A stretch of DNA of 12,667 bases, from contig QHOJ01000182.1 in NCBI GenBank assembly GCA_003218735.1, positions 1 to 12,667 on the forward strand, written 5' to 3'. The notes below the pieces were generated by a model. The model was given only the letters and a program-made list of their open reading frames with translations, ran no database searches and had not been told where the DNA came from. Source of the DNA: Verrucomicrobiota bacterium. Lineage in GTDB: Bacteria > Verrucomicrobiota > Verrucomicrobiia > Chthoniobacterales > UBA10450. Positions 1-8,675 of this stretch are shown piece after piece (the first letter of the stretch is position 1; each line of letters starts with the position of its first letter). The position numbers and the translations under genes were made by a program.

Positions 1-2107
1 CGTTTGATTGCACCTCTGTTTTCCAACCGTTGATCTCCGCAAGCACCGCTTCCATTTTCGGCTCGCCGAGCTTGTCTTCCGGAAACCACCAATCGAGCGC
101 GCGCAACGGCTCGTCCATCGGATCGTCGGACGCCTTTGCTTTTGTGATCAAGCGCAAGGCGAGCTGATGAATGAACCATGCCTCGGATCGGCAATCGCCC
201 GGAGGATCGACCGCTTTCTCGCGCCATTGCAGCAGGCGTTGCGTGTTCGTGAACGCGCCCGCTTTTTCCGCATGGCCAGCGGCGGGAAAGAAAAAGACTT
301 CCGTCTCAATCTCTTCTGTTTTCAATTCGCCGCGCTCGATTTCAGCCGAATCGTGCCAAAACCTGGCCGGCTCGGTTTCCACCATGTCGCGCACGACAAA
401 CCATTTTAGTTTCGCCATCGACCGTCGCTGGAAACGAGTGTTGGGTGCGCCCACAGCCGAATTCTGCCCGATCAAAAACATCCCCTCCACTTTCCCGTCG
501 GCCATGTCATAGAGGTATTCGAAGAAGGAATGGTCGGCGGTGATTTTTGGGAGCCAATTGTAACCGAAATCATTTTCCGCAGTCGCGCATTTGCCGTAGT
601 AGGCCTTTAACAAGCTAACGAAATAGGCGGGCGTGTTCGACCAGAGTCCCGTCTTCAGCGTGTGCGCGTCGAGATATTTTTGCAGCGTCTCCTCAGTTCC
701 GCCGCGCGGCATCGCCAGATAACCGGGTAAAATGTCATAGAGCGTGGGGATATCGGTCGAGCCCTGGATTGAAGCGTGGCCGCGCAAGGCGAGAATGCCG
801 CCGCCGGGCCGGCCGATGTTGCCTAACAACAATTGCAGGATCGAGGCGGTGCGAATGATCTGCACGCCTTTGGAGTGTTGCGTCCAACCGACTGCATAAC
901 AAATCGCCCCCGTTTTGTCCGGGCCCGATGCCCTAACGAGTGTGTCCGCAACTTTGTGAAAGAGTGATGGCGGGATGCCGCAGACTTTCTCGACCATTTC
1001 CGGCGTGTAGCGCGCGAAATGGCGTTTCAGCTTCTGAAAAACACATTGTGGATCTCGCAGCGAAAAGTCGCGTTCCGGATAACTCAGCCCCTCGCCCTTG
1101 TATTGCCAGCTTTCCATCTCATAGGCGCGCCGGCTTTCGTTCCAGCCGGAGAAATAACCGTCCGCGTTATCTTCAGGGTCCCCGTACTCATCGCGTAAAA
1201 TGCAGGATGCATTCGTGTAGTGCACGACGTAATCGCGGAAGAAAAGTTCGTTCTCGATGACGTGATGGATGATTGCGCCGAGAAACGTGATGTCGCTCCC
1301 GGCGCGAATCGGCACCCAGATGTCGGCCAGCGCGCTCGTGCGGGAGAATCGTGGATCGACATGGATGATAGTCGCGCCGCGCTCCCTGGCTTTCATCACC
1401 CAGCGGAACCCCACCGGGTGCGCTTCGGCCATTGAGGAGCCTTCGATTAGAATGCAATCGGCATTGGCGAGATCTTGTTGCGCAGTCGTAGCTCCGCCCC
1501 GGCCGAAGGAGGTGCCCAGACCGGGCACCGTGCTGCTATGTCATATCCGGGCCTGGTTGGACACACAGACCATCCCCAGGCCTCCGGTGAAAAGTTTTTT
1601 GATCAGATAATTTTCCTCGTTATCAAGCGTGGCGCCGCCGAGATGACAAATAGCAGTGGTGTGATTGATCGGTGAGCCGTCTTTCTTGCGTACGAAGGTG
1701 CGCTTGCGTGATTCCCAGACGCGATCCGCCACCATGTCCATCGCGCGATCCAGCGAAATTTCCGTCCATTCTTTCGCCTTCGGCGCTCGATATTTCATTT
1801 TTGTCTCACGGCGATTGTGCGTGAGCAGCTGAAATGAAGCCGCGCCTTTCGGACAAAGATTGCCCTGACTAATCGGACTCTCCGGGTCTCCTTCGATCGA
1901 AATCAGTTTCCCGTTCTTGTGATAAATGAGCTGGCCGCAACCGACACCGCAGTACGGGCAAATCGATCGCGCCACTTGCGCGTCGTCGATCCGCGCGTGC
2001 ATCGCGCGCGTCTTGTCCGACATCGCCTCGAGCCCCGTGCCGTCGGCGCGCTCCCGAATTTGGCGAATGAGCGGCCATTTGCAGAGCAAGCCAGTGAGCG
2101 ACGTCAT
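1..2107 (-). CDS. Selenocysteine-containing formate dehydrogenase catalytic (alpha) subunit, 3' end beyond window
   Basis: Molybdopterin (bis-MGD) oxidoreductase that oxidises formate to CO2. About 702 residues are visible; the C-terminus lies off the left edge. An N-terminal [4Fe-4S] site is formed by C50, C53, C57 (CPYCGVGC) and C85 (LCPKG). The motif GGATLDNEENYLIKKL follows, then NQARI-(TGA)-HSSTVPGLGTSFGRGGAT, in which the in-frame TGA at 1541-1543 (residue 189) sits where the family has Cys or Sec. I read every codon from 1540 to the edge: the frame stays open and keeps matching the family (AEAHPVGF, HVDPRFSRTSAL, GNIGRPGGGILALRGHASIQG, EVFFFPAAGHAEK). There is no twin-arginine signal, so the enzyme is probably cytoplasmic, closest to the actinobacterial-type cytoplasmic FDH as I recall it. 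The ATG at 2107 is chosen because MTSLTGLLCKWPLIRQ matches how relatives begin. An in-frame TTG at 2131, preceded by AAGGTAG, is an alternative. Confidence 0.93.
1511..1529 (-). promoter_or_regulatory. Bacterial SECIS hairpin in the formate dehydrogenase mRNA
   Basis: In the transcript, a perfect 7-bp stem (GGUGCCC paired with GGGCACC) closes a GGUCU loop. It begins 11 nt after the UGA. The E. coli fdhF SECIS has the same 11-nt spacing and a GGUCU-containing apical loop recognised by SelB. The match in position, loop and stem is direct from sequence; SelB binding is inferred. Confidence 0.92.
1541..1543 (-). other. In-frame UGA read as selenocysteine (Sec189 of formate dehydrogenase)
   Basis: The codon falls exactly at the catalytic Cys/Sec position that follows NQARI/ARV in formate dehydrogenases and is followed by HSSTV. 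The same frame continues for 1,540 nt without another stop. A SECIS hairpin lies 11 nt downstream. Together these make recoding to Sec far likelier than a nonsense mutation. Confidence 0.93.
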
Positions 2108-2151
2108 ATTATTTAATCGCTTGATCGGCAATCTTTGTTGCTACCTTCTTC

Positions 2152-2451
2152 ATGCGCAACGGTAAAGCGCAAAAGCTTGTCGCCGCCGGATACCGCGGCA
2201 AACGTTTGCTGCGTGGAGTCGTCTGCGGACTGATGACAACGGCAGGAGGAATCGGTCACAGGTTGCCATATTTGATTCCAGATGTTCGAACTGCTACGGC
2301 CATTGCCGTTGTGATCGTGGCAATTGAACTCTTGGTCATCAGCTGGATCCGAAAACGGTTTATGGATACCCCCTTTCTCCGCGCGGCATTTCAAGTGACT
2401 GTCGGAGGAGTGTTGGTCTTTCTGGTTGGAATCTGGATTGGAAATCCGTAG
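2152..2451 (+). pseudogene. C-terminal half of a VIT1/CCC1-like membrane transporter (probable fragment)
   Basis: Encodes 99 residues with two strongly hydrophobic segments: about residues 47-64 (TATAIAVVIVAIELLVIS) and about 81-97 (VTVGGVLVFLVGIWIG). An earlier, weaker segment spans about 22-42. The ending, with MDTPFLRAAFQVTVGGVLVFLVG, resembles the C-terminal end of VIT1/CCC1-family iron/manganese transporters as I remember them; full members are roughly twice as long. The frame is closed upstream by a TGA at 2122-2124, only 28 nt before the ATG, and the formate dehydrogenase gene begins on the other strand at 2107. The missing N-terminal half therefore cannot be directly upstream. No Shine-Dalgarno sequence precedes the ATG. 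It could instead be a real short membrane protein, and the family assignment is from memory. Confidence 0.5.
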
Positions 2452-7692: not shown

Positions 7693-8675
7693 ATGGATTT
7701 CAATCTTTTAATTGAACGCAAACGCGAACGCTTCGCAGAACTCGAACGCGAAGTCGCTGATCCGCGTCTGTTTGATAATCGCAAGCGCGCCGGCGAAATT
7801 ATGCGCGAACATGCGAGCATCAAGGGCCTGCTCGAAAGCTGGAAGGAGCTCGAAGCGGCGCGACGTCAGTTGGACGACAACCGCGAGCTCGCCACTTCGC
7901 GTGATGTCGAGATGGCGGCGATGGCTGACGACGAAAGGAAATCCGCGCCGGCACGGGCGGGAATGAAGCAGCGATTTTCGCCGCCGATCTTTACCGGATG
8001 TACAATCGCTACGCGGAATCAGCCGGATTAAAAACCGAGGACCTGGAATCGAGTCCATCGGAGCTTGGCGGACTAAAAGAAGTAATTTTTCGCATTTCCG
8101 GCGAATCGGTTTTTCGAAAACTGCGTTACGAAAGCGGCGTTCATCGTGTCCAACGTGTTCCGGCGACGGAAGCGCAAGGCCGGATTCACACTTCTACCGC
8201 CACGGTAGCGGTGCTGCCCGAGGCGGAAGATGTCGATCTCGAATTGAAGCCAGAGGATTTGCGAATTGAGGTCTCGCGCGCTGGCGGTCCGGGTGGACAA
8301 GGAGTCAATACAACCGATTCCGCGGTCCAAGTCCTGCACATCCCCTCCGGAATGATCGTGCGTTGCCAGGATGGACGAAGCCAAATTAAAAATAAGGAAC
8401 GGGCGCTTAGTATTTTGCGGGCACGCTTGCTGGAGCGAAAGCAACGCGAGGAAGCCGAGAAATATAGTGCGCAGCGCCGCGGGCAGATTGGGACCGGCGG
8501 TCGCGAGGAAAAAATTCGTACCTACAATTTTCCGCAGAGCCGGGTGACCGATCATCGCATCGGAGTGACACTTTATGATTTAGATCGTGTCATGAACGGC
8601 GATCTCGGCGAGTTGATTCGATCGCTGCAGGCAGCGGACGTGGCGGAGCGGTTGAAAGAATCCTCGCTCGCGTGA
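7693..8675 (+). pseudogene. prfA: Peptide chain release factor 1 (RF1), with internal deletion and frameshift
   Basis: RF1 recognises UAA and UAG stops and triggers peptide release. The first 81 codons (MDFNLLIERKRERFAELERE to MADDE) are a normal N-terminal helical domain. Near 7933-7940 the frame changes: the original frame runs to 8031 as nonsense, while the other frame begins at [20 protein letters not shown] (from 7938) and runs to 8675. That part holds the PAT codon-recognition motif ([16 protein letters not shown]) and the catalytic GGQ loop ([16 protein letters not shown]), so it is RF1 rather than RF2. Compared with E. coli RF1, the approximately 31 residues between the EMAQDE-like and E-x-RAGTGG segments, including LLLPKDP, are missing. 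Read as one protein it would be about 328 residues against the usual 355-360. It is followed by prmC, whose product methylates this GGQ. The gene should be essential, so an assembly or sequencing error is a serious alternative to true inactivation. Confidence 0.9.

What the first reader, a model, noticed from the sequence alone, without database searches (positions are those of the whole stretch)
1511..1543. Selenocysteine formate dehydrogenase with a near-ideal SECIS element
A single in-frame TGA falls on the active-site Cys/Sec codon. Exactly 11 nt later a perfect 7-bp stem closes a GGUCU loop, with the same spacing and loop as E. coli fdhF. Gene callers will split this gene in two or call it broken. 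It implies the organism encodes SelA, SelB, SelD and tRNA-Sec, which is noteworthy for a probable Verrucomicrobiota lineage.
Basis: partly seen in the sequence, partly recalled or inferred. Interest (0 to 1): 0.75.

Follow-up and report, generated by a model that had tools for sequence, protein, structure and literature searches.

The report
Selenium formate dehydrogenase in soil Verrucomicrobia
The gene carries a genuine selenocysteine signal in a formate-oxidising enzyme of a soil bacterium: a known kind of enzyme in a little-studied lineage, and one whose stored protein copies are usually cut short.

Summary
On the minus strand, TGA 1543-1541 interrupts a formate dehydrogenase (FDH) alpha subunit at the active-site Sec/Cys codon; 11 nt later a 7-bp stem (1529-1523/1517-1511) closes the loop GGUCU. 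It meets the four published bacterial SECIS constraints. Folding energy alone is not unusual. The strong evidence is comparative: 87 of 87 TGA rows keep 6-7 of 7 pairs, and two four-fold degenerate third codon positions (18, 30) pair in 76 of 76 tree rows, switching together in six of six independent cases; 10 Cys rows keep 3-6 pairs. The part downstream of the TGA is still under selection. Congeners carry a selC-selD(Sec)-selA-selB cluster (selA over cut-off in 21 of 25 same-genus genomes), and its right-hand neighbour is also missing from this assembly. The prediction about gene callers holds: 115 of the 120 best database hits lack the part before the Sec site. New member of a known kind.

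The parts
1..2107 (-). fdhA-like gene: formate dehydrogenase alpha subunit (ATG at 2107-2105, runs off the contig end at 1)
   Evidence: uncut orthologues in relatives have open frames of 1088-1134 aa. The start is chosen by likeness to congeners' N termini
1826..1978 (-). N-terminal 4Fe-4S domain (PF04879, residues 52-102 of P0001)
1541..1543 (-). in-frame TGA = selenocysteine codon, residue 197
   Evidence: aligned with the X (Sec) position of PDB 1kqf and 1h0h; TGA in 87 of 97 homologous rows, TGC/TGT in 10
1530..1540 (-). 11-nt spacer between UGA and SECIS stem
1523..1529 (-). SECIS stem, 5' arm GGUGCCC
1518..1522 (-). SECIS apical loop GGUCU
   Evidence: GGTCT in 77 of 87 TGA rows, AGTTT in 7, AGTCT in 2, GGGCT in 1
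1511..1517 (-). SECIS stem, 3' arm GGGCACC
1526..1528 (-). GTG (Val202) inside the SECIS stem, taken as the start of a truncated 'formate dehydrogenase' in database entries
   Evidence: ORF 2-1528; the alignments of 92 of 120 database hits begin at residue 202

Best explanation
The gene encodes the molybdenum/tungsten catalytic subunit of a formate dehydrogenase of the FDH-N-like type, in a soil Verrucomicrobiota lineage. UGA at codon 197 is read as selenocysteine: the hairpin just downstream in the mRNA is bound by SelB carrying Sec-tRNA-Sec, which places Sec before release factor 2 can terminate. Sec197 would be the metal ligand in formate oxidation to CO2, with electrons passing through the N-terminal 4Fe-4S cluster, an FDH-beta-like ferredoxin subunit and an NrfD-like membrane subunit to the quinone pool. 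Shown here: the frame, the codon, the hairpin, its covariation, purifying selection downstream of the codon, a Sec cluster in congeners, and beta-like and NrfD-like genes beside alpha genes of relatives. Inferred: SelB binding, actual Sec insertion, metal ligation, the electron path, and that the Sec cluster is present in this strain but unassembled.
For: Frame, codon and hairpin. Published bSECIS constraints (PMC13188914, section 5) met: loop 5 nt (allowed 3-9), stem 7 bp (4-16), G in the first two loop positions, UGA-to-loop spacing 18 nt (16-37), MFE -13.7 or lower (limit -7.5). Conservation: 87 TGA rows have 7 pairs (55) or 6 pairs (32), 10 Cys rows have 3-6. Covariation: positions 18 and 30, both four-fold degenerate third positions, pair in 76 of 76 TGA tree rows (GC 36, CG 33, TA 5, TG 1, GT 1); on the 69 GC/CG rows 6 of 6 independent switches are concordant, sign test p 0.031; Cys rows pair in 5 of 10. 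Selection on the window branch downstream of TGA: 49 synonymous against 7 nonsynonymous changes in 319 codons. Machinery in congeners: selA over cut-off in 21 of 25 same-genus genomes, selD in 22, tRNA-Sec at 59 bits or more in 19, in one cluster in the three loci read. TGA-FDH and selA go together: 14 of 16 genomes among relatives and 6 of 7 in the phylum draw (codon checked). Right neighbour of the cluster absent in G000. Beta-like protein (G007) and NrfD-like protein (G037) beside alpha genes.
Against: The window's own assembly shows no selA, and nothing over cut-off for selB, selC or selD. G026, rated 99% complete, also has TGA-FDHs (at contig ends) without selA. Energy alone does not beat shuffles, and synonymous resampling of the window alone is only p = 0.064. 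The sign test rests on six independent switches. The tree is a quick one with SH-aLRT support only. No expression or proteomic data.
Confidence: 0.95

Rival explanations
1. The species has recently lost Sec decoding, and the gene is a relic that now makes a truncated 196-residue protein.
For: No selA, and nothing over cut-off for selB, selC or selD, in the window's assembly. G003 shows that a decayed FDH remnant can occur in the genus.
Against: The assembly is 80% complete, and the AddB-like right neighbour of the cluster is also missing. Downstream of TGA the window branch has 49 synonymous and 7 nonsynonymous changes. No other stop in 710 codons. SECIS intact.
Confidence: 0.04
2. The TGA is a sequencing error or a pseudogene mutation of a Cys (TGC/TGT) codon, and the hairpin is coincidental.
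For: The assembly has at least one suspicious spot, the 94-bp prfA deletion.
Against: TGA at the same codon in 13 of 13 same-genus genomes whose orthologue covers it, the window's own counted (the decayed G003 remnant left out), and in 70 of 80 loci from named genomes, with the same kind of hairpin.
Confidence: 0.005
3. UGA is read as tryptophan or cysteine by a changed code or a suppressor tRNA rather than as Sec.
For: A database entry (P0003) shows W at this position, perhaps from a TGA=W translation (inference).
Against: In the same window TGA ends other ORFs, including the prfA 3' ORF. The TGA sits at the Sec/Cys position, with a covarying SECIS and Sec machinery in congeners.
Confidence: 0.005

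Closest known systems
E. coli formate dehydrogenase H (fdhF) SECIS
   Same: 11-nt spacer, GGUCU at positions 22-26 from the U of UGA, UGA at the active-site codon (sequence checked)
   Different: Window hairpin is 19 nt with 7 unbroken pairs; the fdhF hairpin is 17 nt with a bulged U17 (bulge recalled). FDH-H is a more distant relative (715 aa; E 5.5e-45 against 1.2e-159 for FDH-N).
E. coli formate dehydrogenase N alpha subunit (FdnG, PDB 1kqf)
   Same: Best match among solved structures (E 1.2e-159, residues 43-706), Sec (X) at the aligned position
   Different: No twin-arginine signal seen by eye at the N terminus. In relatives the partners differ: an NrfD-like protein (G037) where FDH-N has a cytochrome b (recalled), and a beta-like subunit (G007) below the FDH-beta cut-off (180.6 against 334.7).
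Sec formate dehydrogenases of Acidobacteriota and Actinomycetota
   Same: 53-67% identity, TGA and the same kind of hairpin in most
   Different: The Verrucomicrobiota sequences fall in one group of 16 rows with one Planctomycetota and one unassigned row, SH-aLRT 99. One Actinomycetota group has Cys and no intact stem.

Membership tests
Bacterial SECIS element (bSECIS consensus model, PMC13188914 Fig. 2A legend) | apical loop 3-9 nt and upper stem 4-16 bp | tested here: met
   5-nt loop, 7-bp stem (criteria read)
Bacterial SECIS element (bSECIS consensus model, PMC13188914 Fig. 2A legend) | at least one G in the first two loop positions | tested here: met
   loop GGUCU
Bacterial SECIS element (bSECIS consensus model, PMC13188914 Fig. 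[quoted passage not shown]
   18 nt (11 + 7)
Bacterial SECIS element (bSECIS consensus model, PMC13188914 Fig. 2A legend) | MFE at or below -7.5 kcal/mol | tested here: met
   -13.7 and -14.8 kcal/mol; does not clearly beat shuffles
Bacterial SECIS element (bSECIS consensus model, PMC13188914 Fig. 2A legend) | directs Sec insertion through SelB | not testable with these tools
   needs a reporter, binding or proteomics experiment
Formate dehydrogenase-N alpha subunit (TIGR01553) | score over the curated cut-off 814.2 bits | tested here: inconclusive
   window part, cut by the contig end, 696.8; the post-Sec ORF of congener G007 alone reaches 823.6
Formate dehydrogenase-N alpha subunit (TIGR01553) | Sec or Cys at the catalytic position before His, 4Fe-4S domain, molybdopterin domain | tested here: met
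FDH-N complex (FdnGHI type) | beta subunit over the TIGR01582 cut-off and a cytochrome b gamma subunit | tested here: inconclusive
   not met in the relatives scored: beta of G007 180.6 against 334.7 bits, third gene of G037 NrfD-like. The window's own partners lie beyond the contig end and were not tested, so it is not filed under this complex
Sec-decoding organism | selA, selB, selD and tRNA-Sec in the same genome | tested here: inconclusive
   not met in the window's 80%-complete assembly: no selA, none of the others over cut-off; met in congeners such as G007, G011 and G014. Incompleteness is the likelier reason

The most novel reading that the evidence does not exclude
The recoding signal writes part of the enzyme. 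In this FDH family the residue six after Sec is Pro (codon CCC in the stem) in 87 of 87 Sec rows and Ala, Val, Ser or Thr in 10 of 10 Cys rows. Within the family the SECIS would hold a proline near the active site, and when Sec was exchanged for Cys (one clade, in Actinomycetota) stem and proline were released together. Alongside this, a whole soil Verrucomicrobiota genus would depend on Sec for formate oxidation, hidden because its enzyme is usually deposited without its first part. A late check limits the idea: five more distant Sec FDHs have Ala or Val there and keep the GGTCTGG core, so a SECIS does not need that proline.
Probability: 0.3. Interest if true: 0.4.

Novelty: new member of a known kind. 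Interest (0 to 1): 0.3.

Why it matters
Sec formate dehydrogenases and bacterial SECIS elements are long known. What this adds is a Sec-using soil Verrucomicrobiota genus (selA over cut-off in 21 of 25 genomes, against 26 of 387 in a phylum-wide draw) and a countable annotation fault: 115 of the 120 best database relatives lack the part before the Sec residue. A survey of formate metabolism or selenium use that relies on such predicted proteins would miss the active-site residue.

Tried and rejected
Rejected: sequencing error or pseudogene (relatives share the codon); a changed code (TGA ends other ORFs in the window); the idea that the hairpin's energy proves it (it does not). Synonymous resampling as a stand-alone proof was weak (p 0.064 for the window; 15% of Sec rows under 0.05), because Pro and Gly codons already supply most pairs. 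I suspected a broken FDH in G202 (a TAA was reported inside the match); the TAA lies just before the start, so the gene is whole as far as read. A tblastn of the phage collection matched 25 records, none at 60% identity or more; the three listed are at about 40%; not followed. The 10 Cys rows form one group, so the link between proline and Sec rests on a single event, and distant Sec FDHs without the proline speak against a general rule. The left-flank test of the Sec cluster was not decisive: G017, which has selA, also shows only a weaker relative of that protein.

Literature: searches listed no paper whose title or shown abstract start treats Sec in soil Verrucomicrobia. I read passages only of PMC9312934, PMC5330540, PMC8211732, PMC12013277 and PMC4807772; a term search in PMC5029168 found nothing to show; of PMC13188914 I read passages and one section. 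The other listed papers, among them PMC7857533 and PMC8674449, were seen as listings only. Subscription journals are mostly not held, so absence in print is not claimed.

Full report
What is there. The window is a whole contig (G000:C20, 12,667 bases) of a 1.49-Mb, 322-contig assembly rated 80.26% complete. On its minus strand a formate dehydrogenase alpha gene starts at ATG 2107 and runs off the contig at base 1. Table 11 splits it into two ORFs, 2131-1541 and 1528-2. Read with TGA as Sec it is one frame of 710 codons (from 2131) with a single TGA, at residue 197. The best solved relative is FdnG of E. coli (1kqf, E 1.2e-159), aligned so that residue 197 falls on its X, the selenocysteine. 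Pfam finds the 4Fe-4S and molybdopterin domains.

The hairpin. UGA (1543-1541), 11 nt, GGUGCCC, GGUCU, GGGCACC (to 1511), folded as described at -13.7 (33 nt) and -14.8 kcal/mol (41 nt). It meets the four constraints of the published bSECIS model (section 5 of PMC13188914). The register equals that of fdhF, with the difference that the stem is unbroken. Energy alone is not evidence: 13, 25 and 169 of 200 shuffles fold at least as well for three lengths.

Comparative evidence. All 80 have the site: 70 TGA, 10 TGC/TGT. Adding 17 rows from the window and unnamed relatives gives 97 rows, 87 TGA and 10 Cys. Relatives' fragments that do not reach the site (G001, G008, G021) and the decayed G003 copy are not counted. 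Of the 87, 55 have all seven pairs and 32 six; the 10 Cys rows have 3 to 6. Pairs 19-29, 20-28 and 21-27 never vary in the TGA rows and so say nothing on their own. Pair 18-30 joins two four-fold degenerate third positions; in the 76 TGA rows of the tree set it is GC 36, CG 33, TA 5, TG 1, GT 1, always paired. On the 69 rows that are GC or CG the state changes six times at each position, and six of six independent pairs go together (p 0.031); in the Cys rows it pairs in 5 of 10. The protein sequence does not explain this.

Selection. Between the window and its nearest orthologue (G016, L108) 398 codons are equal, 198 differ silently and 54 by residue. Polarised with other congeners, the window branch has 26 silent and 9 replacement changes in 185 codons before the TGA and 49 and 7 in 319 codons after it. 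One of the three outgroup rows (G010) falls out of register (46% equal residues), which can add a few chance matches. The part beyond the TGA thus looks still under protein-level selection.

The machinery. In the window's own assembly selA has no match; the best selB-like match is 180.3 bits (cut-off 242.25) and the best selD-like 39.7 (cut-off 125). The best tRNA-Sec-like match is 44.2 bits (cut-off 47). That search is loose: all 39 genomes and all 14 controls ring, 27 of 39 and 5 of 14 over the cut-off; I read the separate group at 59 bits or more as true tRNA-Sec. Among the 25 genomes of the genus, selA is over cut-off in 21 (G004 has a partial match below it), selD in 22 (with one in-frame TGA in the 20 whose match covers the start), and tRNA-Sec at 59 bits or more in 19. 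In the three loci read (G016, G011, G007) the order is selC-selD-selA-selB; in the two that reach further a protein with a PDDEXK nuclease domain follows (AddB-like; PF12705), then a helicase-like ORF (AddA-like by eye). The AddB-like protein is absent in G000 and G005 and matched in the other 4 of 6 genomes tested. The left-flank protein has partial matches in all 6, with best ones only 58% and 53% identical in G000 and G005; but G017, which has selA, is no better (53%), so that flank does not decide. The simplest reading is that this stretch is among the roughly 20% not assembled. A real deletion of the whole stretch is not excluded.

Concordance. Of 16 relatives with a TGA-bearing FDH, 14 have selA; the exceptions are G000 and G026. 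In the phylum draw (387 genomes) the listed TGA-bearing FDHs are in G000, G051, G202, G092, G096, G375 and G378, with the TGA at the catalytic codon in each; six of seven have selA over cut-off, against 26 of 387 overall, so 20 genomes have selA without such an FDH in the list (one search did not list all weak matches). G026 is rated 99% complete in 20 contigs; its two TGA-FDHs lie at contig ends (C2 end, C5 start), so a missing stretch is plausible there too, but this is unexplained.

Family and history. A tree of 86 sequences (quick method, SH-aLRT only) puts the Verrucomicrobiota FDHs in one group of 16 rows (99; one row Planctomycetota, one unassigned), next to 17 Acidobacteriota rows. The 10 Cys forms are one Actinomycetota group (98). 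In relatives the alpha gene may be followed by an FDH-beta-like gene (scored for G007) and an NrfD-like gene (scored for G037); other loci were read by eye. The complex is FDH-N-like in its catalytic subunit but apparently not in its membrane part. The nearest named genomes are Verrucomicrobia MAGs (AV47, AV44, AV94, AV34, AV69; titles with depths in cm), which I take to be soil samples; equal contig length suggests that AV47 is G016.

Annotation fault. Of the 120 best hits listed (of 7999 under the E-value limit among 8000 scored), 115 lack the N-terminal part (no CPYCGVGCG motif). The alignments of 92 begin exactly at Val202, whose GTG lies inside the SECIS stem. Five have the N-terminal part: three span the site (P0002 with C, P0003 with W, P0096 with C) and two skip it by an internal gap (P0007, P0012).

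The proline. The residue at Sec+6 is Pro in 87 of 87 TGA rows and Ala 5, Val 3, Ser 1, Thr 1 in the Cys rows. Against a general rule: five more distant Sec FDHs (L083, L202-L205) have Ala or Val there, and P0096 (60% identical) shows C with Pro, though whether its letter is a true Cys or a Sec written as C is not known. As the Cys rows are one group this is a hypothesis, not a result.

Verdict. A true selenoprotein gene with a true SECIS; the enzyme family, signal and machinery are known. New is the lineage and the extent of mis-annotation.

Noticed in passing
window 7693-8675 (+), at 7936/7937: prfA (release factor 1) lacks 94 bp present in 5 of 5 congeners compared, which shifts the frame. 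Real loss or assembly fault cannot be told; other window ORFs still end in TAG.
   Followed up: partly
window 2026-2178; L078 14335-14478, L079 3759-3879, L084 2881-3009, L085 1642-1799: The region around the FDH start (leader plus first ~45 codons) has 70-82% identical copies elsewhere in congeners, before coxB-like genes (by eye) and before an FDH beta-like gene. A shared leader or a spreading repeat; unexplained.
   Followed up: partly
window 2152-2451 (+): An ORF matching only the last third of the VIT1 family (profile 136-213 of 214), head to head with the FDH: probably a truncated gene remnant.
   Followed up: no
L089 8152-8241 and 8417-8506 (G011:C160): Two identical tRNA-Sec genes in a 124-bp exact direct repeat 265 bp apart.
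   Followed up: partly
L082 end, L083 start (G026:C2 and C5): A 99%-complete genome has two TGA-bearing FDHs, both cut by contig ends, and no selA.
   Followed up: partly
L086 6315-6470 (G003:C151): A decayed remnant of the Sec-FDH in a genome that keeps selA, selB, tRNA-Sec and a selD with in-frame TGA: what the machinery serves there, apart from SelD itself, is open.
   Followed up: no
L076 3080-7627 (G016:C5): G016 has two FDH copies; one lies beside an MFS transporter (PF07690; oxalate/formate-antiporter-like only by eye), with no beta gene seen by eye in the 14 kb read.
   Followed up: no
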